A stretch of DNA of 64,000 nucleotides, taken from contig NZ_CANMUA010000008.1 of NCBI RefSeq assembly GCF_947500995.1, positions 186,001-250,000 of the forward strand. Reading direction: 5' to 3'. A model generated the notes under the pieces. That model did not search any database, was not told the DNA's origin, and was given only the letters and a program-made list of their open reading frames with translations. The stretch is from an uncultured Serinicoccus sp. Lineage in GTDB: Bacteria > Actinomycetota > Actinomycetes > Actinomycetales > Dermatophilaceae. The position numbers and the translations under genes are program-made. Positions 7,290-61,208 of the stretch are shown piece by piece; position 1 is the first letter of the stretch, and every line of letters begins with the position of its first letter.

Positions 7290-8377
7290 GCATCCCTCCT
7301 GACCGCCGGTCGGCCACTCCTACCCAGAAGGTGCTCCTGTGCGGTGATGCATCACGACACAGGAACACCTTCTGCGCAGGAGTCGCGAGGGACGGCTCGG
7401 ACCTGGCGCGCCGCGGGCTCGGCGTCGCGGCCGGACTGCTCCTCGACCGGGCCCTCGGTGAGCCGCCGGACGCATGGCACCCGGTGGCGTGGTTCGGGAC
7501 GGCCATGGGTCGCGTCGAGCACCTCACCTACGCCGACCGTCGCACCGCCGGGGCGGGGTATGCCGTCGTCGGCGCCGGCCTCGGCGCTCTCGCCGGCGCG
7601 GCGCTGGCCCGGCTCGGCCGGGCGGGCCTGGCCACCGCGGTCGGGGTGGCGAGCGCCGGCCGGATGCTGCGGCACACCTCCCGGCAGGTCGAGGCGAGGC
7701 TCGTCGCCGGGGACCTGGAGGGCGCCCGGGAGCGCCTCCCCTGGCTGGTCGGGCGCGACCCGCGCGGTCTGGACGAGGCCGGCGTCAGCGCCGCCGTCGC
7801 CGAGTCGCTCGCGGAGAACACCGTCGACGCCGTCGTCGCCCCGGCGGTCTGGGGGCTGCTGGCCGGGGCACCGGGGGTCCTCGTGCACCGGGCGGTCAAC
7901 ACGATGGACGCCATGGTCGGGCACCGCAGCCCGAGGTATGCCCGCTTCGGCACTGTCGCCGCGCGCGCCGACGACGTCATGGCCTGGGTGCCGGCCCGCG
8001 TCTTCGCGGGGCTGGTGGCGCTGGACACCGGGCTGCTCACCCTCGTCGGGGCCCTGCGCGGGCTGCCGCCCGTGGGACCGTCGGCCCGCACGGTCCTGGC
8101 GACCGTGCGGCGGGACGCACCCGCCCACCCCTCCCCGAACGCCGGGGTCGCCGAGAGCGCGGTCGCGGGGGCGCTCGGCGTCGAGCTCGGCGGTCCGCTG
8201 GTGTATGCCGGTCGCCGCGAGGAGCGGCCCACCCTCGGCTCCGGACCGCGGCCCGGTCCGGCGGACATCGCCCGGGCGCGCCGGCTCGTCGACCGGGTGG
8301 AGGGCGCCGTCGTGCTCCTCGCCGTGGCACTGTGGGCAGCGGACCGTGACCGAGCCTCGAGGAGGGGATCCCGATGA
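7286..8377 (+). CDS. cbiB: adenosylcobinamide-phosphate synthase (CbiB/CobD), N-terminus encoded by a palindromic repeat
   Basis: Membrane enzyme joining cobyric acid to aminopropanol (phosphate). Recognisable blocks are LLLDRALGEPPDAWHPVAWF, ESLAENTVDAVVAP, FGTVAARADDVMAWVPARV and HPSPNAGVAESAVAGALGV, over several hydrophobic segments. The start is unusual. GTG at 7286 overlaps the cbiZ stop (GTGA), but the next 40 or so residues are read through a 68-bp palindromic element (7316-7383) and resemble no CbiB N-terminus. No ATG, GTG or TTG lies in frame between the element and the conserved domain, so translation apparently crosses the element (from 7286, or from the in-frame GTG at 7331 inside it), unless a CTG is used. 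The stop overlaps cobU (ATGA). Confidence 0.9.
   Translation: MSIPPDRRSATPTQKVLLCGDASRHRNTFCAGVARDGSDLARRGLGVAAGLLLDRALGEPPDAWHPVAWFGTAMGRVEHLTYADRRTAGAGYAVVGAGLGALAGAALARLGRAGLATAVGVASAGRMLRHTSRQVEARLVAGDLEGARERLPWLVGRDPRGLDEAGVSAAVAESLAENTVDAVVAPAVWGLLAGAPGVLVHRAVNTMDAMVGHRSPRYARFGTVAARADDVMAWVPARVFAGLVALDTGLLTLVGALRGLPPVGPSARTVLATVRRDAPAHPSPNAGVAESAVAGALGVELGGPLVYAGRREERPTLGSGPRPGPADIARARRLVDRVEGAVVLLAVALWAADRDRASRRGSR
7316..7383. repeat. 68-bp palindromic element, copy A (cbiZ/cbiB junction)
   Basis: Two 34-base arms meet at GTGATG|CATCAC (7344-7355). The left arm begins ACTCCTACCCAGAAGGTG and the right arm ends CACCTTCTGCGCAGGAGT, with four mismatches over 34 pairs. It starts 27 bases after the cbiZ stop and is read through as the N-terminus of CbiB. 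See the matching copies at 37452, 38052 and 61141. Confidence 0.9.
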
Positions 8378-8898
8378 CGCTCACCTTCCTCACCGGCGGC
8401 GCGCGCAGCGGCAAGTCGGCGCTCGCCGTCCGTCGCGCGCGGCGCAGCGGGCGGCCGGTGGTCTTCGTCGCCACCGGGCAGGCCGGCGACGAGGAGATGG
8501 CCGACCGGATCGCCCGCCACCAGGCCGAACGCCCCGAGGGGTGGAGCACCGTCGAGGCACCCGTCGACCTGGTCGACGCCTGCGCGGCGCTCGACCCCGG
8601 GGCCTGCGTCGTCGTCGACTGCCTCAGCCTGTGGGTCTCCAACCTCATGGAGCACGGCGACGACGAGGCGGCCACCCTCGACCGGGCCCGGGCCCTGGCG
8701 GGGTGGGCGGCGGCCTACGACGGCATGGTCCTCGTCGTGACCAACGAGGTCGGCCTCGGGATCGTCCCCATGCACCCCGTGTCGAGGGGATACCGTGACC
8801 GTCTGGGTCGGGTCAACGCCGTCCTGGCCCGGGATGCCGGTCTGGCCCAGCTGGTCGTGGCCGGACGGACCCTGACCCTCGACCCGCAGGAGGACTGA
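8374..8898 (+). CDS. cobU: adenosylcobinamide kinase / adenosylcobinamide-phosphate guanylyltransferase
   Basis: Bifunctional CobU/CobP enzyme. It phosphorylates adenosylcobinamide and transfers GMP to give AdoCbi-GDP. At 174 residues it is standard. The P-loop GGARSGKSA is at residue 6, VVDCLSLWVSNLM near 84 is the Walker B region, and VTNEVGLGIVP with SRGYRDRLGRVN near 126-150 is the diagnostic C-terminal block. ATG overlaps the cbiB stop, and six bases separate it from cobT. It provides the activated upper part for CobS. Confidence 0.95.
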   Translation: MTLTFLTGGARSGKSALAVRRARRSGRPVVFVATGQAGDEEMADRIARHQAERPEGWSTVEAPVDLVDACAALDPGACVVVDCLSLWVSNLMEHGDDEAATLDRARALAGWAAAYDGMVLVVTNEVGLGIVPMHPVSRGYRDRLGRVNAVLARDAGLAQLVVAGRTLTLDPQED

Positions 8899-8903
8899 AC
8901 CCC

Positions 8904-10052
8904 ATGGCCGACACCGAGCAGAGCGCCGACCGCGCCCTGATCGAGCGCACGATCGCCGCGATCGGAGGCCCGGACCACGAGAGCTCGGCGGCGGTCGCCC
9001 GCGCCTTCGACGGCAAGGTGAAGCCGCTGCACAGCCTGGGCCGGCTCGAGGCCCTGGCCGCGCGGGTCGCGGGCATCCAGCGGACCACGACCCCCCGGGT
9101 CGACTCGCCGGTCGTCCTCGTCTGCGCCGCCGACCACGGGATCGCGCGGACCGGGGTCAGCGCCTACCCCCAGGAGGTCACGGCGCAGATGCTCGCCGCC
9201 TTCACCGGCGGGCGCGCGGCCGTGTCGATCCTCGCGCACCAGGCCGACGCGCAGCTCGTCGTCGCAGACCTCGGGGTGATCGAGCCGCCGCAGCTGCACC
9301 CCCCGCACACATATGCCGCCGTGCTGGACCGGCGGGTGCGCGCCGGCACCGACAACAGCGCCGAGGGCCCGGCGATGACCCGTGCCGAGGCCGAGCAGGC
9401 GGTCGCGGCGGGGATCCGGCTGGCCGAGGAGCTCATCGAGGGTGGCGCCGACCTCATCGCCCTCGGCGAGATGGGGATCGGCAGCACGACCACCGCCAGC
9501 GTCCTGACCTCCGCCATCCTCGACCGCGACCCGGCCCGCGTCGTCGGGGCCGGCACCGGCGTGGAGGGCGAGGCGCTCGCGCACAAGGTCGAGATGGTCG
9601 ACGCCGTGCTGGCGCGGCACGAGGACGTCGAGGACCCGTGGGACGTGCTGGCCGCCATGGGCGGGCTGGAGATCGCCGCGCTTGCGGGGGTGGCCCTCGG
9701 CTGCGCCTCGCGCCAGGTGCCCGCGCTGCTGGACGGCTTCATCAGCACCGCAGGCGCCCTGGTGGCCTGGCGGCTGGCCCCGGCCGCGGCGGACGCCATG
9801 ATCGCCGCGCACCGCTCCACCGAGCCCGGCCACACCATGCAGCTGCAGGAGATGGGGCTGACCCCGCTGCTCGACCTGGAGATGCGGCTCGGGGAGGCCA
9901 GCGGCGCGGCCCTGGCGATCCCGCTCGTCCGCTCCAGCCTGGCGCTGCTGCAGGACATGGGCGACCTGGCCGACCTCGGGCGGGACGACGCCGCGCCCGA
10001 CGACGCGCCGCCCCTCGGTGCACCCGACGGCGCGCCGCCGCACGGCGGCTGA
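8904..10052 (+). CDS. cobT: nicotinate-nucleotide-dimethylbenzimidazole phosphoribosyltransferase
   Basis: CobT makes alpha-ribazole phosphate from a base and nicotinate mononucleotide for the lower ligand. Family blocks are present: LGRLEALAARVAGIQ near residue 36, AADHGIARTGVSAYPQEVTA near 75, LIALGEMGIGSTTTAS near 183, GTGVEGEALAHK near 216, and the C-terminal EMRLGEASGAALAIPL, which carries the catalytic Glu. The 382 residues include a non-conserved tail after QDMG (about 30 residues, Asp/Ala/Pro rich). AGGAGGA... precedes the ATG closely, and the next gene, cobS, follows after six bases. Confidence 0.95.
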   Translation: MADTEQSADRALIERTIAAIGGPDHESSAAVARAFDGKVKPLHSLGRLEALAARVAGIQRTTTPRVDSPVVLVCAADHGIARTGVSAYPQEVTAQMLAAFTGGRAAVSILAHQADAQLVVADLGVIEPPQLHPPHTYAAVLDRRVRAGTDNSAEGPAMTRAEAEQAVAAGIRLAEELIEGGADLIALGEMGIGSTTTASVLTSAILDRDPARVVGAGTGVEGEALAHKVEMVDAVLARHEDVEDPWDVLAAMGGLEIAALAGVALGCASRQVPALLDGFISTAGALVAWRLAPAAADAMIAAHRSTEPGHTMQLQEMGLTPLLDLEMRLGEASGAALAIPLVRSSLALLQDMGDLADLGRDDAAPDDAPPLGAPDGAPPHGG

Positions 10053-10058
10053 CGACCG

Positions 10059-10808
10059 ATGATCGGCGGGCTGCGGGACGCGACGAGCTTCCTCACCCGG
10101 GTGCCGGTGCCGGCGCGTCAGGGCTTCGACCTGGCCGGCGCCGCGTGGGCGTTCCCCGTGGTGGGCGCCGGGGTCGGGGCGGTCGTGGGTCTCGTCGCCT
10201 GGTCCGGCCACCTGCTGCTGCCGACGCTCGTGGCGGCGACCCTCGCCGTGCTCGTCGAGGTCTTGCTCACCGGGGCGCTGCACCTGGACGGCCTGGCGGA
10301 CTGCGCCGACGGCTGCGGCGGGCACGACCGGGCCACCCGGCTGCGCATCATGAAGGACCACGCCGTCGGGGTCTACGGCGCGGCGGCGGTCGTGCTGGCG
10401 CTGCTGCTGCAGGTCGCCGCGGTGCACGCGCTGCTGGGGGCGCTCGACGGGTGGGGTGTCGTCGCCGTCCTCGCCTCGGTCGGCGCTCTCTCGCGCTCGG
10501 CCATGCTCCCCGTGGCGCTGCGGCTGCCCTCGGCCCGGCCGGAGGGGACCGCGGGGCCGCTCGTGCGCGGGTTGCTGCCCGGCCAGGTCCTGGTGGCCGG
10601 TGTCCTGGGCGCGCTGTCGACGGTGCTGCTCTGGCCGGTGGGGGCGTGGGTCGCCCTGGCCGTCCTGCTCGCCGCGTTCACCACCCCGTGGCTCGTCGAG
10701 GTGTGGGCGGACCGGATGCTCGGCGGGGCCACCGGGGACGTGCTCGGCGCCACGGCGGTGCTCACCCAGGTGGCCGGGTTGCTCGCCGCGCTCGCGGTGC
10801 TGGGCTGA
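10059..10808 (+). CDS. cobS: adenosylcobinamide-GDP ribazoletransferase (cobalamin synthase)
   Basis: Polytopic membrane enzyme that joins AdoCbi-GDP to alpha-ribazole (phosphate), the last assembly step. Of 249 residues, TRVPVPA at the N-terminus, HLDGLADCADGCGGHDRA near residue 74 (the acidic metal-binding block) and IMKDHAVGVYG near 97 are diagnostic. Five to seven hydrophobic segments follow. It is the last gene of the block. A short tandem repeat follows the stop, and the next gene has its own leaderless promoter, so the operon probably ends here. Confidence 0.95.
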   Translation: MIGGLRDATSFLTRVPVPARQGFDLAGAAWAFPVVGAGVGAVVGLVAWSGHLLLPTLVAATLAVLVEVLLTGALHLDGLADCADGCGGHDRATRLRIMKDHAVGVYGAAAVVLALLLQVAAVHALLGALDGWGVVAVLASVGALSRSAMLPVALRLPSARPEGTAGPLVRGLLPGQVLVAGVLGALSTVLLWPVGAWVALAVLLAAFTTPWLVEVWADRMLGGATGDVLGATAVLTQVAGLLAALAVLG

Positions 10809-10852
10809 CCGGGCTGACCCCGGGCTGACCCCGGGCTGACCCGGGCTGACGA
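10803..10852 (+). repeat. short tandem repeat after cobS
   Basis: Four to five copies of an 11-base unit (GGGCTGACCCC, last copies slightly shorter) begin at the cobS stop codon. They could form GGG/CCC pairings at the transcript 3' end. There is no T-run, so classical intrinsic termination is uncertain. Confidence 0.6.
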
Positions 10853-10894
10853 CCTGGGGTCGTGGCGCCGGGTCGACGTGGGCCGCGCACGGCA

Positions 10895-10900
10895 TACATT
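10895..10900 (+). promoter_or_regulatory. -10 for a leaderless transcript (TACATT)
   Basis: TACATT lies six bases before GTG 10907 with no Shine-Dalgarno between them, the spacing expected when transcription starts at the start codon. Confidence 0.6.
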
Positions 10901-10906
10901 GGCGGC

Positions 10907-11830
10907 GTGAGCACACCCCTGTTCGGCCAGTACCCGGCCCCCCTGCGCACCGTCGCGCACGTCAGCGACACCCACCTGCTGGGCGACGGTGCCCGCCAGT
11001 TCGGCGCCATCGACACCACCGCCCACGCCCGGGAGGCCCTCGAGCGGCTCACCCGGCTCGACCCCGCGCCGGACGCGATCGTGGTCACCGGCGACCTCGC
11101 CGACCAGGGCGAGGCGGGGGCATACCGCGAGCTCCGGGCGATGACGGAGCCGCTCGCGACCGACCTGGGCGCGCAGGTCGTCTGGGTCATGGGCAACCAC
11201 GACGAGCGCACGGTCTACGCCGCCGAGCTCTTCGGTCGCGAGGCCGGGGTCGACGAGCCGCAGGACGCGGTCTACGACGTCGGCGGCCTGCGGGTGGTCT
11301 CCCTCGACACGACGGTGCCCGGCTACCACCACGGCGAGCTGCGCGAGGAGCAGCTGCACTGGCTGGCCGAGGTGCTCGCCACGCCCGCCGAGCACGGCAC
11401 GATCCTGGCGCTGCACCACCCGCCGATCCCGGTGCCGATGGTGCCCGCCGCCGCCATCATCGAGCTGCTCGACCAGGACCGGCTGGCCGCCGTGCTGGAG
11501 GGCAGCGACGTCGTCAGCATCCTCGGCGGGCACTTCCACTTCTCCTCGCACTCCACCTTCGCCGGGATCCCGGTGAGCGTGGCCGCGGCGACGTGCTACC
11601 TCGAGGACCCGGCGCCGCTCGGTCGCTTCACCTCGGCGATCGACGCGCACCAGTCCGTCAACGTCGTGCACGTGTATGCCGACCGCGTCGTCCACACGAT
11701 CGTGCCCGTCGCGGCGGCACCGGAGGTCAAGGGGCACCCGCTCGAGGTGGTCGAACAGCTCGCCGCGCTGACCCCCGAGCAGCGACGCGAGATGATCTCG
11801 CGCAAGGGCGCGCGGAGCGCGGAGGACTGA
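10907..11830 (+). CDS. class III cyclic nucleotide phosphodiesterase-like metallophosphoesterase
   Basis: Calcineurin-type dinuclear metal phosphodiesterase resembling CpdA and mycobacterial Rv0805. The metal-binding blocks appear in order: HVSDTHL (about residue 18), TGDLADQG near 61, MGNHDE near 94, LALHHPPIP near 166 and GGHFHFSS near 207. Length 307 residues. GTG 10907 is preferred because it starts a compact N-terminus and has a -10 six bases upstream. Activity could be on cAMP or other phosphodiesters. No neighbour narrows the substrate. Confidence 0.8.
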   Translation: MSTPLFGQYPAPLRTVAHVSDTHLLGDGARQFGAIDTTAHAREALERLTRLDPAPDAIVVTGDLADQGEAGAYRELRAMTEPLATDLGAQVVWVMGNHDERTVYAAELFGREAGVDEPQDAVYDVGGLRVVSLDTTVPGYHHGELREEQLHWLAEVLATPAEHGTILALHHPPIPVPMVPAAAIIELLDQDRLAAVLEGSDVVSILGGHFHFSSHSTFAGIPVSVAAATCYLEDPAPLGRFTSAIDAHQSVNVVHVYADRVVHTIVPVAAAPEVKGHPLEVVEQLAALTPEQRREMISRKGARSAED

Positions 11831-11845
11831 GCCGGGCGGGCGACC

Positions 11846-11851
11846 TAGGGT
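11846..11851 (+). promoter_or_regulatory. -10 for a leaderless transcript (TAGGGT)
   Basis: TAGGGT lies six bases before GTG 11858, and no ribosome binding site is visible. Confidence 0.6.
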
Positions 11852-11857
11852 GGGCCG

Positions 11858-12820
11858 GTGCCCGACCTCATCCCCGCCGCCTTCGCCGACCTGGTCCGCG
11901 ACCGGCCCGCCGACGAGGTGCTGGGTGCGCTGCCCGACCGGGCCGGGCTGCCCCGTGCCGTCGACGGCGCCAGCTGGCTCGACGACCTGCCCGGGCTGGT
12001 CCACCGGCTGCTCGCCGACTGGCGGCTGAGCGTCACCGGGGCCAGCCGGCACGGCGAGTGCGCGCTCGTGGTGCCGGTGCGACGGCACACCGGGGAGACG
12101 GCGGCGCTCAAGGTGACCTGGCCGCACGCCGAGTCCCGCCACGAGCACCTGGCGCTGCGGGCCTGGGACGGCCGGGGTGCCGTCCGTCTGCTGGCCGCGG
12201 AACCCTCCTCCTCCGCGCTGCTCCTCGAGGGTCTGGACGCGGACCGGTGCCTGCGCGAGCGGCCGCTGCTCGAGGCGTGCGAGGTCGTCGGCCTGCTGAT
12301 GCGCGAGCTGGACCAGCCGGCCCTGCCGCGGATCGACGCGGTGGCGACGAAGGCGCAGCGGTGGGCCGAGCAGCTCGCCCGCCCCACCCCGAGCGTCCCC
12401 CGGCGGCTCACCGAGCAGGCGGCCGGGACCCTGCCCGACCTGCTCGCCTCACCCGGCCCGCCGTCGCTGGTGCACGAGGACCTGCACGACCTCAACGTCC
12501 TCGCGCCGCTGCCAGGTGCGTCGGACCGTGGCGACTGGCTGGCGATCGACCCCAAGCCGGTCGCCGGAGAGTGGGCGTATGCCGTCGCGCCGGTCGTCTG
12601 GAACCGCGCCGAGGAGGCCGCCCGGGCGAGCAACCTGCGCATTCACGCCCGGCTGCGCGCCGACGTCGTCGCCGAGGCGGCCGGCCTGGACGAGGACCGG
12701 GTGCGCGCCTGGACCTTCGTCCGGCTGGTGCTCAACGCGGTGTGGGCCGCGCCGTACGCGCCCGCCTCCGACGGCTTCCGGGCGCGGATGATCGCCCTGG
12801 CCAAGGCCTTCACCGACTGA
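11858..12820 (+). CDS. aminoglycoside phosphotransferase-like kinase
   Basis: Kinase-like fold of the APH(6)/streptomycin-hydroxyurea phosphotransferase group, 320 residues. The catalytic segment reads VHEDLHDLNVL (near residue 206, usual H-G-D-x-x-x-x-N, with Glu in place of Gly), followed by AIDPKPVAGEWAYAVAPVVW, the DxD/E magnesium region of this subgroup. The N-lobe lysine is probably in ALKVTWPHAESRHEHLAL near 88. Resistance cannot be claimed from sequence, because many such proteins phosphorylate other small molecules. Single leaderless gene. Confidence 0.75.
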   Translation: MPDLIPAAFADLVRDRPADEVLGALPDRAGLPRAVDGASWLDDLPGLVHRLLADWRLSVTGASRHGECALVVPVRRHTGETAALKVTWPHAESRHEHLALRAWDGRGAVRLLAAEPSSSALLLEGLDADRCLRERPLLEACEVVGLLMRELDQPALPRIDAVATKAQRWAEQLARPTPSVPRRLTEQAAGTLPDLLASPGPPSLVHEDLHDLNVLAPLPGASDRGDWLAIDPKPVAGEWAYAVAPVVWNRAEEAARASNLRIHARLRADVVAEAAGLDEDRVRAWTFVRLVLNAVWAAPYAPASDGFRARMIALAKAFTD

Positions 12821-12865
12821 GGCCACGCCGCGGTGACTGGCTGAGCGCCCGGGCGGCCACCGGCA

Positions 12866-12871
12866 TACGCT
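12866..12871 (+). promoter_or_regulatory. -10 for a leaderless transcript (TACGCT)
   Basis: TACGCT lies six bases before ATG 12878. It overlaps one copy of the GGCATAC motif. Confidence 0.55.
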
Positions 12872-12877
12872 CGAGGG

Positions 12878-13756
12878 ATGCACACACGGACTATCGGCAA
12901 CCCCACCGTCGGCGAGCACCAGGTCGGCGCGATCGGCCTCGGGCTGATGACCTTCGACCAGAGCGGGGAGCAGCCCCGCGAGCAGCTGCTCGACACGGTG
13001 CGCGCGGCGCTGGACGCGGGGGTGACCCTGTTTGACACCGCGGACGCCTACGGCCCGGGCGACAAGGGTGCCGGCGCCCAGGGGGAGAACGAGCGCCTCA
13101 TCGCCTCGCTGCTCGACGAGCTGGACGTGCGCGACCAGGTGCTGCTCGCGACCAAGGGTGGGCACGTGCGCACCGACGGCGGCGCCTGGGAGACCGACAG
13201 CAGCCACGCCTACCTCGTCTCCACGGTCGACGCCAGCCTCGACCGGCTCGGGGTCGAGCAGATCGCCCTGTGGCAGCACCACCGGCCCGACCCGGACACC
13301 CCGGACGAGGAGGTCTTCGCGACGCTCAAGGAGATCGCCGACTCCGGGAAGGTCGCCATGGTCGGACTGTCCAACGCCGACCCCGCGCAGATCCGCGCCG
13401 CGCACGCCGTGCTCGGGGACGCGCTGGTGAGCGTGCAGAACCAGTTCAGCCCGAAGTTCCGCAGCAGCTACCCCGAGATCGAGGTGTGCGCCGAGCTGGG
13501 CCTCGCCTTCCTGCCCTGGTCACCGCTGGGCGGGCTCAACGACGCCAAGCAGCTGGCCGAGCACCACCCGGCCTTCGCCGAGGTCGCGCAGGAGCGTGGC
13601 GCCAGCCCGCAGCAGGTGGCGCTCGCCTGGGAGCTGGCCCAGTCGCCGGTCGTCATCCCCATCCCCGGGGCCAAGCGTCCCCAGTCGGTCACGGACTCGG
13701 CCGCGGCCGCCGACCTGCGGCTGACCGACGAGGAGCTGGCGCGCCTGGAGGGCTGA
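12878..13756 (+). CDS. aldo/keto reductase
   Basis: NADPH-dependent (beta/alpha)8 oxidoreductase, 292 residues. Typical blocks are GVTLFDTADAYGPGD near residue 47 (catalytic Asp and Tyr), VLLATKGG near 88 (Lys), WQHHRPDP near 131 (the His position) and the cofactor segment VVIPIPGAKRPQSV near 258. The most similar group is AKR proteins of the YdhF/perakine-reductase type. Its 3' end overlaps the convergent epimerase gene by 68 bases. Substrate unknown; proximity to the polyol locus may be coincidental. Confidence 0.85.
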   Translation: MHTRTIGNPTVGEHQVGAIGLGLMTFDQSGEQPREQLLDTVRAALDAGVTLFDTADAYGPGDKGAGAQGENERLIASLLDELDVRDQVLLATKGGHVRTDGGAWETDSSHAYLVSTVDASLDRLGVEQIALWQHHRPDPDTPDEEVFATLKEIADSGKVAMVGLSNADPAQIRAAHAVLGDALVSVQNQFSPKFRSSYPEIEVCAELGLAFLPWSPLGGLNDAKQLAEHHPAFAEVAQERGASPQQVALAWELAQSPVVIPIPGAKRPQSVTDSAAAADLRLTDEELARLEG

Positions 13757-32480: not shown

Positions 32481-32660
32481 CTCAGGCTGTGCGCGTCTAC
32501 GCAGGCTGTGCACCCCCGCGCAGCCTGTTCTCCCCGCGCAGGCAGTGCATGTCTCACGCAGCCTGTGCACGTCTATGCAGGCTGTGCATGTCTCGTGCAG
32601 CCTGTGCACGCGGTAGACCGCACGCACAGGCTGCATTTCCGTGCACAGGTGACGAGCGCG
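32481..32660. repeat. 19-bp tandem array with an inverted centre (intergenic)
   Basis: Units of 18-20 bases with cores GCAGGCTG or GCAGCCTG start at 32482, 32501, 32520, 32538, 32558, 32577 and 32597. The last unit runs into a 38-bp near-palindrome (32597-32634), after which the cores continue in the opposite orientation (CACAGGCTGC, then GTGCACAGACTGC). Because GCAGGCTG and GCAGCCTG are nearly complementary, neighbouring units can pair. No believable gene covers it. Confidence 0.85.
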
Positions 32661-32692
32661 TGCACAGACTGCATTTGCCGTGCACAGACAAC

Positions 32693-37451: not shown

Positions 37452-37519
37452 ACTCCTGCGCGGAAGGTGCACCGATGCCGTGATGCATCACGGTGGAGGT
37501 GCCTCTTCTGCGGGTGAGT
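37452..37519. repeat. 68-bp palindromic element, copy B
   Basis: Centre GTGATG|CATCAC at 37480-37491. Left arm starts ACTCCTGCGCGGAAGGTG, right arm ends CTTCTGCGGGTGAGT. It lies five bases beyond the stop of the - strand SRPBCC gene (37525) and about 90 bases upstream of the transporter start. This is the most diverged of the four clear copies. Confidence 0.85.
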
Positions 37520-38051: not shown

Positions 38052-38119
38052 TCTTCTACCCAGAAGCTGTACCGGTGTCGTGATGCATCACGGCAGAGGG
38101 ACACCTTCTGCGTGCGAGT
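38052..38119. repeat. 68-bp palindromic element, copy C (supplies the stop of the chelatase gene)
   Basis: Centre GTGATG|CATCAC at 38080-38091. Left arm TCTTCTACCCAGAAGCTG, right arm ending CACCTTCTGCGTGCGAGT. The right arm encodes the last nine residues (SHAEGVPLP) and the TGA of the - strand chelatase gene. Confidence 0.88.
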
Positions 38120-38807
38120 GGCCCGAGGACGGGGCCACGGCCTCCCGGTAGCGGCGGACGACCAGGTCGCGGAGCAGGTCGTGGGTGCCGAGCGGACCGG
38201 TGGCGACCACACCGCCGGCCTCGGCGACCCGCTGCGCCTTGGTGGCGAACCAGCCGGGCGACAGCAGGTGGGTGGCCAGCACGACGCGGGTATGCCCGGC
38301 GATCCGCAGCGCGGTGAGCGCACAGGCCGCGCGCGGCCCGGGGCCGCTGAGGAAGGCCGTGGCGGTGGCGGTGCCCAGCCGGGAGCCGACCAGCTCGGCG
38401 ACCCGGGCCACCTCGGCGCGGGCGGCCTCGACGCTGGAGCCGGCCCCCACCACCAGGACGGCGTCGGGCTCCGCGTCGACCTCGCGGACCCGGTCGGCCA
38501 GGGCGTCGACGACCTCGTCGGCGGCCCCGAGTGCCGGCGTGAGCGTGGAGCCCGGGAGCGCCTCGAGCGCCGAGGGCACGTCGTGCTTCACGTGGTAGCC
38601 CGAGGCGAGGAAGAACGGCACGACCACGGGGTCGGTGACATCGGCGAGCACCTCGTCCAGGGTCGGTCCGCAGACGTCGACGTAGCCGACCACGGCGGGC
38701 AGCGGCAGACCGAGGGCGGCGGCGGCACGGTCCGCGCACCCACGGACGACCGCCTGGCCCTCGGGGCTGGCGGTGCCGTGCGCGGCGACGACGAGGGGCC
38801 TGCTCAT
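38088..38807 (-). CDS. CbiX/SirB-type sirohydrochlorin chelatase
   Basis: 239-residue chelatase of the CbiX long form with two related halves. SRPLVVAAHGTASPEGQAVV at the N-terminus has the catalytic His of the family, PVVVPFFLASGYHVKHDVP near residue 63 is the metal-site block (second His), and the second half repeats it as VVLATHLLSPGWFATKAQR near 180. It probably inserts iron into sirohydrochlorin made by the adjacent CysG. The alternative ATG 38864 overlaps the cysG stop (ATGA) and adds 19 residues. I prefer 38807 because the family begins there. The C-terminal tail is supplied by palindromic copy C. Confidence 0.85.
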   Translation of the reverse strand: MSRPLVVAAHGTASPEGQAVVRGCADRAAAALGLPLPAVVGYVDVCGPTLDEVLADVTDPVVVPFFLASGYHVKHDVPSALEALPGSTLTPALGAADEVVDALADRVREVDAEPDAVLVVGAGSSVEAARAEVARVAELVGSRLGTATATAFLSGPGPRAACALTALRIAGHTRVVLATHLLSPGWFATKAQRVAEAGGVVATGPLGTHDLLRDLVVRRYREAVAPSSGHSHAEGVPLP

Positions 38808-38860
38808 GCGACGGTGCGGGTGAGCGGCCAGGTCGGACGGGCCGGCAGCAGGGACGGGGC

Positions 38861-40183
38861 TCATGCGACGGCGTGGGCGGCGAGGCGGGCCGACCGGGCG
38901 GCCGTGGGTGCGTCGAGGGGACCACCGGCCCGCTCGTCGAGGGCCGCGGCGTCGGACGCTTCCGCGCCGCCGACCTGGTCCGCCCATCCGTGGGCCAGGG
39001 TGACGACGTCACCGACGACGACGACGGCGGGCGAGGTGACGCCGACCTGCTCGGCCCGGTCCGCGATGTCGGCGAGGGTGCCGAGGGTCACCCGCTGCTC
39101 GGTGGTCCAGCCGCGCTCGACGATGCCCACCGGGCAGCCCGCCGGCCGCCCGGCCCCGACCAGCCGCGCGGCGGTCTCGCGCAGCCCGGCGACGCCCATG
39201 AGCACGACGAGGGTGTGGTCGGTGCCGGTGGGCAGCCCAGGCAGCTCCTCGTGGCCGGTCACCACGGTGAAGCCACGCGCCAGCCCGCGGTGGGTGACGG
39301 GGATGCCTGCGGCGGCGGGCACCGAGACGGCGCTGGTGATGCCCGGGACGACCTCGACCGGCACCCCTGCCTCCTCGCACGCGGCCCGCTCCTCGCCGCC
39401 GCGGCCGAGGACGTAGGGGTCGCCGCCCTTGAGCCGCACGACCCCGTGACCGCGCAGCGCCTCCTCGACGAGGATCCGGTTGATCTCCTGCTGCGGCACG
39501 GGGTGGTGGTGCGGCTGCTTGCCGACGTCGACGACGCGCACGGTCTCGGGCAGCCGGGCCAGCACCGCCTGCGGGACCAACCGGTCGGCGACGACGACGT
39601 CGGCCGCCGCGAGCAGGGTGGTGGCACGGCGGGTGAGCAGCTGCTCGTCGCCGGGGCCGGCGCCCACCAGCGCGACCCAGCCGCCGTGCGGGCGACGGGC
39701 GCGCAGGTCGACGACGCCACCGGTGAGGTGGCCGGCGAGGTCGGTGCGGATGCTCGCGGCGCGTCGCGGGTCGCCCCCGGCGTGCACGGCGACCCGGACC
39801 TCCCCGGCCGGGGTCGGCACGGCGGCGCGGGCCGGGACCTGCGCGCTGCCCGCGGCGCCGTCCCCGGCGCTCACGCAGAAGGTATGCCGCGCCTCGGCGT
39901 CCGCGGCGACCTGCCGGTCCACCTCGGCGTCGCCGGTCGCGGTGTGCACGAGGAAGGCGCCGCCGAGGTCGGGGGCACCGGCATACCGGCGCGGGGTCCA
40001 CGACAGGGTCGTGTCGTGGGACAGCAGGGCGGCCAGCGCGGGGCACAGCTCGGGGGCGACGACCTCGACGACCGCGCCCTCGGCGAGCAGGTCGGCGACC
40101 CGGCGGGCGGTGACGGGCCCGCCGCCCACGGCGACGACGCGCCGCCCGGACAGCGACAGGCCGAGCAGGAACGGTCCGCTCAT
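38861..40183 (-). CDS. cysG: siroheme synthase (precorrin-2 dehydrogenase fused to uroporphyrinogen-III C-methyltransferase)
   Basis: 440 residues in two parts. Residues 1-155 form the precorrin-2 dehydrogenase fold, with VVAVGGGPVTARRVADLLAE as the NAD motif and VSAGDGAAGSAQVPARA in place of the usual F-x-P-A region. Residues 165-410 form the SAM-dependent methyltransferase: VALVGAGPGDEQLLTRRA, DVVVADRLVP, VVRLKGGDPYVLGRGGEE near 262, VPVEVVPGITSAVSVPAAAG near 290 and VVLMGVAGL near 335 are diagnostic. It makes siroheme precursor for sulfite or nitrite reductase. ATG 40183 overlaps the cysH stop and the 3' end meets the chelatase gene. No reductase gene is in the window. Confidence 0.93.
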   Translation of the reverse strand: MSGPFLLGLSLSGRRVVAVGGGPVTARRVADLLAEGAVVEVVAPELCPALAALLSHDTTLSWTPRRYAGAPDLGGAFLVHTATGDAEVDRQVAADAEARHTFCVSAGDGAAGSAQVPARAAVPTPAGEVRVAVHAGGDPRRAASIRTDLAGHLTGGVVDLRARRPHGGWVALVGAGPGDEQLLTRRATTLLAAADVVVADRLVPQAVLARLPETVRVVDVGKQPHHHPVPQQEINRILVEEALRGHGVVRLKGGDPYVLGRGGEERAACEEAGVPVEVVPGITSAVSVPAAAGIPVTHRGLARGFTVVTGHEELPGLPTGTDHTLVVLMGVAGLRETAARLVGAGRPAGCPVGIVERGWTTEQRVTLGTLADIADRAEQVGVTSPAVVVVGDVVTLAHGWADQVGGAEASDAAALDERAGGPLDAPTAARSARLAAHAVA

Positions 40184-43498: not shown

Positions 43499-43570
43499 CT
43501 GCCTGGGCAGAGAAGGAGTCCCGGCTCGGGGTTGTAGGACCTGCGTGGAGCACCTTCCTCTGCTCAGGGT
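43499..43570. repeat. probable decayed copy of the palindromic element
   Basis: Arms CCTGGGCAGAGAAGG (from 43502) and CACCTTCCTCTGCTCAGG (43551-43568) are imperfectly complementary and resemble the ends of the 68-bp element, but the GTGATGCATCAC centre is lost. It lies 18 bases beyond the stop of the - strand EamA gene, between two convergent genes, and could serve as their terminator. Confidence 0.45.
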
Positions 43571-55016: not shown

Positions 55017-55094
55017 GTGACCGGACGCGACCTGCTCATGATGCGCCGGCAGCTGATGACCGTGCGCGACCTGGCCGAGGCCGCGCCCCGGTAG
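55017..55094 (+). CDS. 25-residue small ORF with strong ribosome binding site
   Basis: GTG 55017 is preceded by GAGGAGG seven bases upstream and starts 10 bases after the citrate synthase stop. The product is TGRDLLMMRRQLMTVRDLAE then AAPR, basic and amphipathic (three Met-Met/Arg-Arg clusters). The stop TAG is part of TAGTCT, a possible -10 for galM. It may be a real microprotein of the citrate synthase operon or a leader; no family is recognised. Confidence 0.45.
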   Translation: MTGRDLLMMRRQLMTVRDLAEAAPR

Positions 55095-55142
55095 TCTCTC
55101 GCCGACCGCCCGCGCCCCCTGTCGTCCCTCCCGAGGAGCCGC

Positions 55143-56150
55143 ATGCCCACGCCACCCCCCGGCCCCACCACCGTCACGCTCACGGCGTCCGGCATCCGCG
55201 TCGACCTCCTCAGCACCGGAGCGGCCATCGCCAGGGTGGAGCTCACCGACGGGCACGGGGACGGCCCGGTGGACGTCGTCCTGGGCCACGCCGACCTGGC
55301 GGACTACGGGCGGGTCCGGGACTTCCAGGGGGCCACGATCGGGCGGGTCGCCAACCGCATCGACGGCGGGCGGTTCCGCCTCGGAGACCGCGCGGTGGAG
55401 GTGCCGCTCGACCCGGACGAGCCGCACGCGCTGCACGGCGGGCCGGAGGGCTTCGACCGGCGCGAGTGGGCGCTCGTGGAGGCGACCGACGATCGCGCGA
55501 CGTGGTCGCTCACCTCCCCGGACGGTGACCAGGGGTTCCCGGGTGAGGTCGAGGTCGAGGTGAGGTATGCCGTCACGCCCGGCCGCCTCACCGTCGAGCA
55601 CCGCGCCACGACCTCGGCGCCGACGCCGGTCAGCCTGACCAACCACAGCTACTGGAACCTCGACGGGGAGGGTGCCGGCGAGATCCTCGACCACACCCTG
55701 CAGGTCGACGCCGACACCTACCTGCCGGTGCGCCCGGACCAGATCCCCACCGGCGAGGTGCGCGACGTCGCCGGCTCCCCCTTCGACCTGCGCCGCCCGG
55801 TCGTCCTGGGTGAGGCGCTGGCCGCCGACGACGCGCAGCTGCGGATCGGCCAGGGCTTCGACCACCACCTCGTCGTGCCGGGCGAGGGCCTGCGGCGGCA
55901 CGCGGTCCTGGTCGGCGGCTCCGGCCGGCGCATGGAGGTCTGGAGCGACCGGCCCGGGCTGCAGGTGTATGCCGGCGCCCACTTCGACGGCACGGTCACC
56001 GGGCCGCGCGGGGTCGCCTACGGCCCGCGCGCCGGGATCGCGCTGGAGACCCAGGCCTTCCCCGACGCGGTGAACCAGCCGCGCTTCCCGTCGGTCGTGC
56101 TGCACCCGGGCCAGACCTACGCCTCGACCACCGAGTGGCGGTTCTCCTGA
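55143..56150 (+). CDS. galM: aldose 1-epimerase (mutarotase)
   Basis: 335 residues of the galactose mutarotase fold. TIGRVANRIDGGRFRLGD near residue 65 has the N-R substrate block, HALHGGPEGFDRREWAL near 93 the first catalytic His, TNHSYWNLDGEGAGEILDHT near 165 the second His region, and GIALETQAFPDAVNQPRFPS near 298 the general-base Glu. It interconverts alpha and beta anomers of hexoses. GAGGAG precedes ATG at nine bases. Converges on the ABC permease gene (21 bases between stops). Confidence 0.94.
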   Translation: MPTPPPGPTTVTLTASGIRVDLLSTGAAIARVELTDGHGDGPVDVVLGHADLADYGRVRDFQGATIGRVANRIDGGRFRLGDRAVEVPLDPDEPHALHGGPEGFDRREWALVEATDDRATWSLTSPDGDQGFPGEVEVEVRYAVTPGRLTVEHRATTSAPTPVSLTNHSYWNLDGEGAGEILDHTLQVDADTYLPVRPDQIPTGEVRDVAGSPFDLRRPVVLGEALAADDAQLRIGQGFDHHLVVPGEGLRRHAVLVGGSGRRMEVWSDRPGLQVYAGAHFDGTVTGPRGVAYGPRAGIALETQAFPDAVNQPRFPSVVLHPGQTYASTTEWRFS

Positions 56151-56171
56151 CCCTCGGCGGGTCGCCGGGGG

Positions 56172-57782
56172 TCAGCCGGCCGGGACGTCGCGGCGTCGCA
56201 GGCCCACGAACCCGGCCGCCAGCAGGACGAGCCCCAGCACCGTGAGGACGGCGAGGGCCGCGGGCTGCGGGCCCTGCCCCACCACGTCCTGGCCGACGGC
56301 CAGGAACGGCGTGAGGTCGAGCAGCCAGGACGGCAGGCCGAGACCCGGGCCGAGGTAGGCCAGGACCGCGGCGACCGCGAAGGCCGCCCAGGCGAGAGCC
56401 TGGACCCGGGGGATCCACCCGAACAGCGCCGCGCCCAGACCGAGGAAGACCAGGACGGCGGGGAGCTGCGCGGCGCCCGCGCCGGTCACCTCGCCGAGCC
56501 AGGCGTCGTCCCCGAGCGAGGCGGCGGCGCCGGCCCCGAGGGCGAGGGCACCGACCCCACCGACCACGAGGGCGCCGAGGGCCACCACGAGCAGGCGCGG
56601 GCCGAGCCACCCGCTCCGCGAGCGGGGCGCCGAGAGCGCGACCTCCAGCCGGCCGCTCCCCTCCTCACGTCGCCAGGACCCGACGGCCACGAGGACGTAG
56701 GCGCTCATCAGCAGGGCCAGCATGACGAGGAAGGTGGACATCATCGGCGCCAGCACGAGGTCCGCGGCGCGCCCCTCCGCCTCGGGGCCGGCTCCGAGGA
56801 ACCCGCCGAGCTCGGGGTTGTCGAGCACGGCGTCGACGATCTCCTGGGCGAGCGACCCGAAGACGGCCATGAGGGCCGCAGCACCCAGGGCCCACCCCGC
56901 GACCACCGTCCGCTGCTGGCGCCAGGCCAGCCCCAGGGACGTCTGCAGGGCCGCCGAGGCGCGGGGAGGCGCCCGACGGGGCCGGAGCAGGCCACCACCG
57001 ACGTCGCGCCGGCCGCGCAGCACGACGGCGAGCGCGACCAGCCCGGCCCAGAGCACCACCGGCAGGGCCAGCGGCCACCACCGGGCGTCCTCGCCGAAGG
57101 CCCGAACCTCGTCCACCCAGCCGTGCGGGCTGACCCACACCAGGGCGCCCTCGCGCAGCGCCCCGACCCCGCGGAGGAGGAAGGACACCAGCGTCAGCGC
57201 GAGGCCGATCCCCCAGACGGCCCGGGCGTGCTCCACCACCTGGGCGGCCGCGGCGGTGACGCCCACGAAGACCAGCCCGAGCCCCGCGACCGCCAGACCG
57301 TAGCGCAGCGCACCCGCGGGGTCGGTACCGAAGGGCACCATCGCCGCACCCACCCCCGCCCCGGTGACGACCATCGCCGTGCTGATGAGGAGCACCGCCG
57401 CCGCGAGCGGGGCGTCGCGCCCGATCCGGGCCGCGAGCAGCAGCTCCAGCCTCCCGGTCTCCTCCTCCCGACGGGTGTGCCGGGTGGTGAGCGCGATCGC
57501 CATGACGGGCACGGCGAAGGACAGGACGAAGCCGAACTCGTTGGCCAGCACCCCGCCCAGGGTGTCGAGCCCGGCCACCCGGCCGTTGATGACGGCGAGG
57601 GCGTCGCCGCCGAGGCTCGCGGCATACCCCGCCAGCTTCTCCGGGGTGTCGTAGAGCGCGCTGATCGACGACCCGGTGAGCACCATGACGGCGACCAGGC
57701 CGACGACCCAGGCGAGCAGCGTCCGCCAGCCGGTCCGCAGCGCGATCCCGGTCATGGTCCCGACACCGGTCGCGGCGCTCAT
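56172..57782 (-). CDS. ABC-2-type exporter permease (large, two halves)
   Basis: 536 residues with about twelve hydrophobic helices in two similar halves, the layout of actinobacterial polyketide-antibiotic/tetronasin-type ABC exporter permeases. [20 protein letters not shown] begins the first half. The recurring motif [20 protein letters not shown] (near 105) is echoed as [20 protein letters not shown] (near 372), a hallmark of this family. ATG 57782 overlaps the ATPase stop (ATGA). With the TetR gene it forms an exporter operon probably induced by its substrate. Confidence 0.88.
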
Positions 57783-58708
57783 CGCGCGTCCACCCGCTCG
57801 TCGTGGCCGGCGTAGGCCCGCAGGAACAGGTCGTCCAGGCTCGGCGGGGTGACCGTCAGGGTGTGGATCCCGGCGTCATGCAGCGCCCCGACGAGCCGGC
57901 CGACGGCGTCCGGCTCGACGGAGGCGACCACCTCGGTGCGGCCCTGCTCGTCGGCGACCGTCTCGACGTCGCCCACCCCGGGCATGTCGTGCAGCGCCGG
58001 CGCGCGGTCGGTCACGGCCCGCACCGCGGAGCGGGTATGCCGTCGCAGGTCCGTGAGGGTGCCGGTCGTCACCGTCCGGCCGGCCCGGATGATCGAGACG
58101 CGGTCGGCCAGCGCCTCGACCTCGCCCAGGATGTGGCTGGAGAGCAGCACCGTGGTGCCCTGCTCGCGGCGCTCCCTGACGACCTGCTGGAAGACCTCCT
58201 CCATGAGCGGGTCGAGCCCCGAGGTGGGCTCGTCGAGGACGAGCAGCTCGGCGTCGGTGGCGAGGGCCGCGACCAGCGAGACCTTCTGCCGGTTGCCCTT
58301 GGAGTAGTCCCGGGCGCGCCGGGTCGGGTCCAGGTCGAAGCGCTCCACGAGGTCGGCGCGCCGGGACTCGTCGACCCGGCCGTGGGCCCGGGCGAGGATG
58401 TCGATGCACTGGCCACCGCTCAGACCGGGCCAGAGCGTGACGTCGCCGGGGACGTAGGCGACCCGGGAGTGCAGCTCGACGGCGTCCGCCCACGGGTCGC
58501 CGCCGAGGAGCCGCGCGGTGCCGCCGTCGGCGCGCACCAGGCCCAGCAGGACGCGGATGGTGGTGGACTTCCCGGCCCCGTTCGGGCCGAGGAAGCCGTG
58601 CACCTCGCCACGCTCGACGGCCAGGTCGAGGCCGTCCAGGGCCGCGACCGGACCGAAGGTCTTGCGGAGCCCGGAGATCTCGACGAGGCGGTCCGAGGAG
58701 GTGGTCAT
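57779..58708 (-). CDS. ABC exporter ATP-binding protein
   Basis: 309 residues. Walker [19 protein letters not shown] near residue 40, [20 protein letters not shown] as the signature region (YSKGNRQ in place of LSGGQ), Walker [18 protein letters not shown] near 160 and H-loop [13 protein letters not shown] near 193. A C-terminal domain with [20 protein letters not shown] and [17 protein letters not shown] is typical of drug-exporter ATPases (CcmA/DrrA-like). ATG overlaps the tetR stop. Confidence 0.92.
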
Positions 58709-59349
58709 GACGGGCGTCCTTCCGGTGCGGGTGGGTCGGTGAGCATGAGGGAGAAGAAGGAGTAGGCGTCCCGCCCCCACCGGTCGATGCCGCCGGAGCC
58801 GAGGGGGTCGAAGCCGAGCAGCTCGGTGAGCGGGTCGCGCAGCAGCACCCCGCCGAGGTCCATGGCCAGCAGCAGCGCGGCGCGCACCTCCGGGTCGGGG
58901 CCGGGGTCGAGGACGCCGGCGTCCCGCCACTGCGTGAGCAGGTCCACGGTCATCCGGTGCCACCCCCGCAGCACCTCGCGGGCGCGCTCGTCGTCGGCGA
59001 GGAGCATGCGGCGCAGGTAGGGCAGGACCGGTGAGTCGTCTGGGAAGACCTCGGCGAAGGACCCGAACTTCGCCTCGGCCGAGGCGTCGAACGTCTCCAC
59101 GGGCGAGAGTCCGGCCATCGCCCCGGACTCCTCCGGCGTGGGCATGAGCTCCTCGGTGAGACGCAGGATGTGGTCGTCGCACGCCGCCCGGAGCCCCTCC
59201 TTCGATCCGTAGTGGTGCAGCACCAGGGCCGGCGAGACCTCCGCCGTGGCGGCGATCCGGCGCACCGTCACCGCGTCGAAGCCCTCCTCGGCGAAGAGGC
59301 GCAGCGCCGCGTCCCTGATCCGCGCCTTGGGGGTGAGGTCTGAACGCAT
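58705..59349 (-). CDS. TetR-family repressor of the exporter operon
   Basis: 214 residues. [20 protein letters not shown] then [20 protein letters not shown] is the TetR HTH (residues 5-45), with [17 protein letters not shown] following. The C-terminal effector domain (TetR_C-like, with [20 protein letters not shown]) is variable. ATG 59349 is preferred; ATG 59358 lies three codons upstream in frame. Palindromes cover and precede the start codon, so it should be autoregulated. Co-transcribed with both ABC genes through ATGA overlaps. Confidence 0.92.
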
Positions 59350-59382
59350 GTTCAGCATGCTAAACGACTGTTCAGCATGCTG
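59341..59382. promoter_or_regulatory. complex TetR operator over the start codon
   Basis: TGAACGCATGTTCA (59341-59354) is an inverted repeat spanning the tetR ATG. GTTCAGCATGCTAAAC (59350-59365) is a second near-palindrome, and GTTCAGCATGCTG recurs at 59370-59382, 20 bases on. The repeated TTCA/TGAA half-sites suggest two or more dimers bound over the promoter. Confidence 0.75.
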
Positions 59383-59415
59383 TCCACACACCTACCGCCG
59401 CCGGGCACCCTGGGG

Positions 59416-59421
59416 GATACT
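59416..59421 (+). promoter_or_regulatory. -10 of the leaderless rhomboid gene (GATACT)
   Basis: GATACT, six bases before GTG 59428, no Shine-Dalgarno. Confidence 0.5.
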
Positions 59422-59427
59422 GGCGGG

Positions 59428-60024
59428 GTGAGCAGCTCGAGCCTGGCCACCTGGCGGCGCGACGCCCCCGCGTGGGCCCGTCGCGTCATACCCGTCGTGC
59501 TCCTGGTGGCCCTGATGTGGCTCACCGAGATCGTCGACCTGGTGCTGCCGCTGAGCCTCGACCAGTTCGGCATCCGGCCGCGCGACCTCGGCTCGCTGCC
59601 CGGCATCGTGCTCAGCCCGTTCCTGCACCTGGGCTTCGGCCACCTCATGGCCAACACGGTCGCCCTGCTCGTGCTCGGGTCGCTGCTGGCGCTGACCACC
59701 CGCCACCTGTGGCTCGTCACCGGGGGCGTGGTGCTCGTGAGCGGCCTCGGCGTCTGGCTCCTGGGCGCCCCGGGGACCGTGCACATCGGCGCCAGCGGCG
59801 TCGTCTACGGGTATGCCGCGTTCCTCGCCGTCTACGGCTTCGTCTCCCACCACCTGTGGCGGGCGCTGCTCGGGGTGCTGGTCATCCTGGTCTACGGCTC
59901 GATGATCTGGGGGGTGCTGCCGCTGCAGGAGGGGGTCTCCTGGCTCTCCCACCTCTTCGGCGCCGTCGGCGGCGTCGGGCTGGCCCTCTGGCTCGGCCGT
60001 CGCGACCGGGTCGCGCGCCGCTGA
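59428..60024 (+). CDS. rhomboid-family intramembrane serine protease
   Basis: 198 residues, six predicted helices. HIGASGVVYGYAAFLAVYGF near residue 128 carries the catalytic Ser in G-A-S-G, and SWLSHLFGAVGGVGLALWLG near 172 the catalytic His. FLHLGFGHLMANTVALLVLG near 69 holds the conserved H-x-x-x-N. Rhomboids cut membrane proteins; the substrate is unknown. GTG 59428 gives a short cytosolic N-terminus and has a leaderless-type -10. Confidence 0.9.
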   Translation: MSSSSLATWRRDAPAWARRVIPVVLLVALMWLTEIVDLVLPLSLDQFGIRPRDLGSLPGIVLSPFLHLGFGHLMANTVALLVLGSLLALTTRHLWLVTGGVVLVSGLGVWLLGAPGTVHIGASGVVYGYAAFLAVYGFVSHHLWRALLGVLVILVYGSMIWGVLPLQEGVSWLSHLFGAVGGVGLALWLGRRDRVARR

Positions 60025-60073
60025 CCGGCCGCTCGGCGGAATGCCCCGGGCCGTCGAGGTCGTTGACGTGTCC

Positions 60074-61090
60074 ATGAAACGCATCGGCTTCCTCTCCTTC
60101 GGGCACTGGACCCCGCACCCCCAGTCGGCCACGCAGTCGGCCTCCGACGTCCTCCTGCAGTCGATCGACCTGGCGGTCGCGGCGGAGGAGCTGGGCGCCG
60201 ACGGCGCCTACTACCGCGTGCACCACTTCGCCCGGCAGCTGGCCTCGCCGTTCCCGCTGCTCGCGGCGGTGGGCGCCCGCACGGAGCGCGTCGAGATCGG
60301 GACCGGCGTCATCGACATGCGCTACGAGAACCCGCTCTACATGGCCGAGGACGCCGGTGCGGCCGACCTCATCTCCGGCGGTCGCCTGCAGCTGGGGATC
60401 TCCCGCGGCAGCCCCGAGCAGGTGGTCGAGGGCTACCGGCACTTCGACCACCACCCCGCCGAGGGGGAGAGCGACGCCGACATGGCGCGACGGCATACCG
60501 CGCGCTTCCTCGAGGTGCTCTCGGGCGAGGGCTTCGCCCAGCCCAGCCCGCGCCCGATGTTCCCCAACCCGCCCGGGCTGCTGCGCGTCGAGCCCCACAG
60601 CGAGGGCCTGCGCGAGCGCATCTGGTGGGGCGCCGGGACCCGCGCGACCGCCGAGTGGGCGGGCACCCAGGGGATGAACCTCATGAGCTCGACGCTGCTC
60701 ACCGAGGACGCGGGCGTGCCCTTCCACCAGCTGCAGGCCGAGCAGATCCGCGTCTTCCACGAGGCGTGGCGGGCCGCCGGGCACCCCGGCACCCCGCGGA
60801 CGTCGGTCTCGCGCAGCATCTTCCCGCTGGTGGACGAGCGCGACCACGCCTACTTCGGGCTGGAACGGCGCAGCACCGACCAGGTGGGCGTCATCGACGG
60901 GTCACGGTCGACCTTCGGCAAGACGTATGCCGCGGAGCCGGACGAGCTGACCCGCCAGCTGGCCGACGACGAGGCGATCGCGGCGGCGGACACGCTGCTG
61001 CTGACGGTCCCCAACCAGCTGGGCGTCGACTACTGCGCGCACGTCATCGAGGGCGTGCTGGACGTCGCGACGGAGCTCGGCTGGCGCTGA
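60074..61090 (+). CDS. LLM-class flavin-dependent oxidoreductase
   Basis: 338 residues of the luciferase-like monooxygenase fold. KRIGFLSFGHWTPHPQSATQ at the start, VAAEELGADGAYYRVHHFAR near residue 36, EIGTGVIDMRYENPLYMAED near 75 and ADLISGGRLQLGISRGSPEQ near 97 are the flavin-binding blocks. The family uses FMN or F420; IGTGV with YMAED is compatible with either. ATG 60074 is used because homology starts there. The frame is open 11 codons further up without an RBS. Confidence 0.88.
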   Translation: MKRIGFLSFGHWTPHPQSATQSASDVLLQSIDLAVAAEELGADGAYYRVHHFARQLASPFPLLAAVGARTERVEIGTGVIDMRYENPLYMAEDAGAADLISGGRLQLGISRGSPEQVVEGYRHFDHHPAEGESDADMARRHTARFLEVLSGEGFAQPSPRPMFPNPPGLLRVEPHSEGLRERIWWGAGTRATAEWAGTQGMNLMSSTLLTEDAGVPFHQLQAEQIRVFHEAWRAAGHPGTPRTSVSRSIFPLVDERDHAYFGLERRSTDQVGVIDGSRSTFGKTYAAEPDELTRQLADDEAIAAADTLLLTVPNQLGVDYCAHVIEGVLDVATELGWR

Positions 61091-61140
61091 CCGGCTGGGC
61101 GGGCGCGGTCGAGTCGCGGCCTCCCCAGGGAGTTCCGAGG

Positions 61141-61208
61141 ACTCCTGCGCAGCAGGTGTTCCTCTGTCGTGATGCATCACCGCAGAGGAACACCTGCTGC
61201 ACACGAGT
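61141..61208. repeat. 68-bp palindromic element, copy D
   Basis: Centre GTGATG|CATCAC at 61169-61180. Left arm starts ACTCCTGCGCAGCAGGTG, right arm ends CACCTGCTGCACACGAGT. Compared with copy A, both arms carry AGCAGG for AGAAGG and CCTCTG for CCTGTG, i.e. matched changes that keep pairing. It lies four bases beyond the stop of the - strand MFS gene, between two convergent genes. Confidence 0.9.

What the first reader, a model, noticed from the sequence alone, without database searches (positions are those of the whole stretch)
7316..61208. A dispersed 68-bp palindromic element with an invariant GTGATGCATCAC centre, always at gene 3' ends
Four copies (7316-7383, 37452-37519, 38052-38119, 61141-61208) share the same 68-base length, two 34-base arms and the identical 12-base centre. 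Comparing A with D, substitutions are matched on both arms (AGAAGG to AGCAGG, CCTGTG to CCTCTG), so the pairing is maintained. Each copy starts between 0 and 27 bases of a stop codon: cbiZ (A), the SRPBCC gene (B), the chelatase (C, which provides the stop) and the MFS gene (D). That behaviour resembles REP/BIME or transcript-end elements but I know of no named family with this core. No transposase is nearby.
Basis: partly seen in the sequence, partly recalled or inferred. Interest (0 to 1): 0.85.

Follow-up and report, generated by a model that had tools for sequence, protein, structure and literature searches.

The report
Dispersed palindromes paired with a nuclease
The four mirror-image DNA elements in this window belong to a small repeat family that also sits on both sides of one gene elsewhere in the same genome, a gene for a DNA-binding protein fused to what looks like a DNA-cutting domain, and relatives of that gene in other actinobacteria are mostly bracketed by their own, different repeats, which points to an undescribed pairing of selfish repeats and enzymes.

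The parts
7316..7383 (.). copy A, 68-bp near-palindrome, 26 bp after the cbiZ stop
   Evidence: site shared with G007, G029, G030
37452..37519 (.). copy B, 68-bp near-palindrome, 5 bp from the stop of an SRPBCC-like gene; the only copy at its site among the 70
   Evidence: orthologous site lacks it in G029 and G030
38052..38119 (.). copy C, 68-bp near-palindrome; the CbiX chelatase gene (minus strand, 38088-38987) ends inside it
   Evidence: site shared with G007, G027, G029, G030, lacking in G012
61141..61208 (.). copy D, 68-bp near-palindrome between convergent luciferase-like and MFS genes
   Evidence: site shared with G029 and G030, lacking in G012 and G018
32582..32649 (-). copy of a second nuclease-linked repeat family; its nuclease homologue is matched at G000:C9:29699-30610
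   Evidence: 79% over 68 bp to the repeat that flanks that gene; 8 places in the own genome
43501..43568 (+). weaker match (74% over 69 bp, E 2e-6) to a third family that flanks nuclease homologues in G012, G029 and G030
   Evidence: family

Best explanation
The 68-bp palindromes are the cis elements of a nuclease-palindrome pair. The palindrome-nuclease-palindrome unit lies at G000:C5:148731-149966. The protein's N-terminal AbiEi-like part (winged helix plus AbiEi C-domain) most likely binds its own palindrome. Its C-terminal Vsr-like nuclease domain most likely cuts there (double-stranded, or an extruded cruciform), so that repair or recombination copies the palindrome, or the whole unit, into other intergenic sites or into an allele that lacks it. 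Single palindromes, such as the four in the window, are non-autonomous copies or leftovers. They survive mostly between convergent genes, where a hairpin harms no promoter. SHOWN: copies and paired arms; nuclease gene flanked by its own family; the same layout in 40 repeat families; copies away from the gene in 5 searched families; purifying selection on the gene; presence/absence differences between species; one unit-long tract of low divergence. INFERRED: that the protein binds and cuts the palindrome and that this drives spread.
Confidence: 0.6

Rival explanations
1. Operator or binding-site network: the AbiEi-like part uses the flanking palindromes to control its own gene, and dispersed copies are binding sites for regulation, chromosome structure or self-marking in a defence system; the nuclease domain serves defence, not spread.
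For: AbiEi proteins autoregulate through inverted repeats (PMC7319586, passages); one PADLOC AbiEi model hits 21 of 22 members.
Against: The repeat brackets both ends of the gene, not only the promoter; dispersed copies sit mostly at gene 3' ends rather than promoters (1 divergent site of 24, plus a tied one).
Confidence: 0.15
2. Bidirectional transcript-end element: a hairpin that terminates or protects both convergent transcripts, with the nuclease as an unrelated neighbour.
For: 16 of 23 intergenic dispersed sites lie between convergent genes (p 9e-6 against 25% of intergenic bases in the window; 14 of 21 and p 7e-5 without the G001 and G005 subfamily); hairpins of -26 to -55 kcal/mol on six strands folded; paired changes.
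Against: No T-run terminator around the four copies; copy C folds hardly better than shuffles (z -2.0); does not explain why 58 of 81 nuclease homologues carry matched, family-specific repeats on both sides.
Confidence: 0.1
3. Non-autonomous copies (MITEs) of an ordinary transposon with a conventional transposase, the nuclease being a passenger between two copies.
For: Terminal, often inverted repeats around a single gene; dispersed single copies.
Against: No target duplication; the repeats lie a median of 97 and 92.5 bp from the nuclease match, which leaves little room for another gene, and this over 40 families.
Confidence: 0.08
4. REP elements spread by a RAYT tyrosine transposase elsewhere in the genome.
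For: General resemblance only.
Against: Length and end tag do not fit; the bracketed protein matches no HuH family in Pfam. RAYT presence genome-wide was not searched.
Confidence: 0.03

Closest known systems
REP/BIME elements with RAYT (TnpAREP), the REPtron
   Same: Short dispersed palindromes; a dedicated nuclease gene bordered by the same palindromes; species with several repeat families have repeat-specific units (PMC3733652, passages; PMC8266576, abstract and one section).
   Different: Protein is AbiEi-like plus Vsr-like instead of HuH; repeats here 68 bp (median 70 over families) instead of 20-40 bp; no GTAG tag; 4 to 13 copies in the seven genomes with more than one instead of often over 100 (PMC2817692, listing).
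AbiEi antitoxin (type IV toxin-antitoxin AbiE; S. agalactiae AbiEi, M. tuberculosis Rv2827c)
   Different: Extra Vsr-like domain; no second gene between the palindromes of the own unit.
Vsr / homing endonuclease I-Bth0305I
   Different: No intron or intein seen; bracketed by palindromes, which also occur alone.
IS200/IS605 insertion sequences
   Same: Coding sequence bordered by palindromes (PMC8266576, section seen).
   Different: Unrelated enzyme; whole-unit multiplication in a genome not seen for this family.

Membership tests
REP element | 20-40 bp palindrome (PMC3733652, listing) | tested here: not met
   69 of 70 model hits span exactly 68 bp, one 67
REP element | GTAG (or CGTC) tetranucleotide at one end | tested here: not met
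   Consensus ends are ACTC...GAGT
REP element | cognate HuH tyrosine transposase (RAYT) bordered by the repeat | tested here: not met
   The bordered gene is AbiEi_4 plus Vsr-like, no HuH family hit in 22 members; RAYT elsewhere in the genome was not searched
AbiE type IV toxin-antitoxin | AbiEi fold | tested here: met
AbiE type IV toxin-antitoxin | AbiEii toxin in the same operon | tested here: not met
   Own unit only: no room for a second gene between E and F (ORF lists; gene caller); neighbours beyond the palindromes were not searched for AbiEii
Vsr-like (PD-(D/E)XK) nuclease | fold and conserved acidic/lysine residues | tested here: met
Vsr-like (PD-(D/E)XK) nuclease | DNA cleavage | not testable with these tools
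   needs biochemistry
homing endonuclease system | gene copied into alleles lacking it at the same site | tested here: inconclusive
   Presence/absence at one site and one unit-long tract of low divergence; ordinary recombination not excluded
insertion sequence / MITE | target-site duplication | tested here: not met
   0 of 70 for k = 4 to 10; some IS types lack it (recalled)
intrinsic terminator | hairpin followed by T-run | tested here: not met
   none found around A, B, C and D; copies outside the window not scanned
any Rfam family | match above gathering score | tested here: not met
   0 matches in the window

The most novel reading that the evidence does not exclude
A new class of bacterial mobile or homing element: AbiEi-Vsr fusion nucleases, matched by models named AbiEi antitoxin or DUF559, are the enzymes of selfish palindromes. 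Each nuclease lineage has evolved its own palindrome family, recognises it through an antitoxin-like DNA-binding domain, and spreads it by cutting, in dozens of independent families across Actinobacteria.
Probability: 0.5. Interest if true: 0.93.

Novelty: new variant of a known kind. Interest (0 to 1): 0.83.

Why it matters
REP/RAYT is the well-studied case of dispersed palindromes bound to a dedicated bacterial nuclease. A second, enzymatically unrelated case would show that this organisation evolved more than once, would give a role to a set of proteins now matched only by AbiEi-antitoxin and DUF559 models, and would explain some palindromic repeats at gene ends in high-GC genomes. The 40 nuclease-repeat pairs make recognition and coevolution directly testable.

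Tried and rejected
Rfam families: none in the window. Viral relatives: 0 confirmed of 11 pattern matches; plasmids and phages: no match by tblastn at E 1e-5 with the G030 protein, so no sign of carriage on those. Target-site duplication: none. Clean empty sites at B, C and D: flanks too worn. T-run terminators: none around A-D. Recent transfer of the 68-bp-family nuclease between G000 and G030: not seen. PDB sequence search: only weak hits, best E 0.16. Cross-pair control: 3 of 60 pairs scored above 15.5 (23.5, 27.5, 141.5); I did not look up which pairs these were, and used the random-interval null (550-bp flanks; its 4 positives come from two places in the window). Dropped rows: L223 and L231 (match at or near a contig end) were left out, so 18 of 20 loci were tested there, 15 positive, at least 6 of the 18 being loci of my other sets under another name. 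The 68-row alignment A6 leaves out the G001 and G005 copies as another subfamily. One search leaves out the unit ends and the G012 unit site (3 of 27 groups). Background genes were limited to pN under 0.08. The last allowed paper search was not used.

Full report
OBSERVATION. The four elements exist as described. A covariance model from 11 own copies finds 12 distinct places in the own 3.8 Mb genome; one further hit at E 0.63 was ignored. In 58 genomes searched with strict filters, 9 have hits, all among the 31 of the same genus (own included); the 27 others have none. That gives 70 copies; 69 of the 70 hits span exactly 68 bp and one 67. The single copies in G001 and G005 are a related subfamily. 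On the 68 others, 81% of cells form pairs, 113 cells have both sides changed against 65 in shuffles, and the covariation score is 0.171 against 0.109, with 0 of 500 shuffles as high; sliding the partner by 1-3 columns gives at most 0.089. The number of pairs with a double change (21) was reached by 25 of 500 shuffles, and orthologous copies are not independent. At site D, G000 and G030 differ by matched changes on both arms while their 600-bp flanks are 93-96% identical. Consensus over both strands: ACTCnTACGCAGAAGGTGTTCCTCTGCnGTGATG and its mirror.

PLACEMENT. With my own codon-usage gene caller, the 70 copies fall 41 convergent, 22 tandem, 4 divergent, 3 inside a called gene. Grouped by site, leaving out the unit ends and the G012 unit site, 24 dispersed sites give 16, 6, 1 and 1, one of the tandem ones being a tie. 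16 of 23 intergenic sites are convergent where 25% of the window's intergenic bases are (p 9e-6; 14 of 21, p 7e-5, without the subfamily). Divergent sites are under-represented (p 0.005, or 0.04 if the tie counts as divergent and the subfamily is left out). By flanks, 62 of 70 copies fall into 17 sites shared by two to six genomes and 8 copies stand alone; some links rest on one flank only. So the family is old and mostly inherited, with gains or losses: B is missing in G029 and G030, C in G012, D in G012 and G018.

THE LINKED GENE. Two copies (E and F; G000:C5:148731 and 149899) start 1,168 bp apart around one gene on the minus strand, 148767-149795. A pair 1,157-1,168 bp apart recurs in G007, G022, G027 and G030, the same genomes that have close orthologues of that gene, 74-95% identical. 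In all five the gene's frame ends inside the downstream palindrome, 32 bases in, in the own genome at the central TGA. In G007 the match runs over three frames, so that copy looks broken or misassembled. Between intact copies dN/dS is 0.22-0.25. At the same site G012 has a single palindrome and no gene; its left half resembles E and its right half F (read by eye), as expected if E and F recombined, or if the unit entered a palindrome. G018 has neither. G029 has no close orthologue either, yet 10 copies.

GENERALITY. Aligning about 500 bp upstream with 500 bp downstream of each homologue, 21 of 30 loci in the first set carry a matching repeat (score 18 or more, my count), 15 of 18 among loci with named organisms (some of them the same loci), and 29 of 40 in a further set picked by hand from the list. 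Four of those 40 had shown repeats before; the rest give 25 of 36. Over 81 loci (30 + 40 + 11 of the named ones; orthologues in different genomes counted apart) 58 are positive; 300 random intervals of the window give 4, from two places. Window genes give 1 of 63, the gene between B and C. The 58 fall into 40 families by sequence; median length 70 bp, median distance 97 and 92.5 bp from the match, 39 of 58 self-complementary beyond 59 of 60 shuffles, and many inverted with respect to each other. Nocardioides, Phytoactinopolyspora, Curtobacterium, Labedella and an actinomycetote MAG are among them. 23 of 81 have no such repeat.

COPIES OF OTHER FAMILIES. The L067 repeat occurs at 6 places in G004, two of them the flanks, and beside homologues in G027 and G002. 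The L079 repeat occurs at more than ten places in G019, two of them the flanks, and beside a homologue in G024. The L262 repeat, from another homologue of the own genome, occurs at 8 places there, two of them the flanks and one at window 32582-32649, and flanks the corresponding gene in G012, G029 and G030. The L228 repeat of Nocardioides litoris has one copy beyond the two flanking ones. L067 and L079 also have stray hits in genomes where I saw no homologue next to them.

MOBILITY. No target duplication. In the L063 family, G029 and G012 have nearly identical nucleases: synonymous difference 0.049, against a median of 0.194 and a minimum of 0.168 for six other genes. Neighbouring ORFs give 0.179 and 0.162, and an ORF on the opposite strand of one of them 0.080. 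Low divergence begins in the upstream repeat and stops at the end of the downstream repeat: 27 mismatches in 1,250 bp (limits set after seeing them), against 78.7 and 52.0 per kb outside. This suits homing or unit-level conversion, but ordinary recombination is not excluded. Other pairs of the L063 family and the G000-G030 pair of the 68-bp family show no such effect.

COMPARISON. REPtrons have the same layout: coding sequence bordered by palindromes, co-varying repeat and enzyme (PMC8266576, abstract and one section; PMC3733652, passages). Enzyme, repeat length and end tag all differ, so this is not a REP. Nine literature searches listed no paper whose title or abstract links AbiEi, DUF559 or Vsr-type proteins to dispersed palindromes; the library lacks most subscription journals and all preprints, so absence is weak evidence.

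VERDICT. The pairing of nuclease gene and flanking repeat is well supported; I would put it above 0.95. That the nuclease acts on its repeat is likely (about 0.8). That it spreads the repeat is the best but unproven reading (about 0.6).

Noticed in passing
window 32582-32649: Copy of a second nuclease-linked repeat family (homologue matched at G000:C9:29699-30610); the surrounding 32540-32690 holds further repeats of the same letters.
   Followed up: partly
window 43501-43568: 74% match to a third family that flanks nuclease homologues in G012, G029 and G030; I saw no homologue of that family among the five own-genome matches.
   Followed up: no
L082:315-500: Another dispersed repeat of about 70-180 bp, with many hits in G018 and several in G000, G012 and G029.
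   Followed up: no
L201 and L202 (site D in G027 and G007): The intergenic site that holds copy D elsewhere carries different, repeat-like sequence here (CGCCATGGCGACG), as if the spot attracts repeats.
   Followed up: no
L155:966-1033, L175:1046-1113, L186:976-1043: One orthologous copy lies inside an apparent gene in three genomes; could be a caller error or an in-gene copy.
   Followed up: no
L282: A further homologue in the own genome (G000:C11) is flanked by tandem, non-palindromic TTCCCACCGGGCGTCGTGA-type repeats, inverted between the two sides.
   Followed up: no
L217 / G005: The record titled Acidobacteria bacterium ATN4 has a contig of the same length (24,599) as G005:C112, a genome held under the window's actinobacterial genus; the record's name looks wrong.
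   Followed up: no
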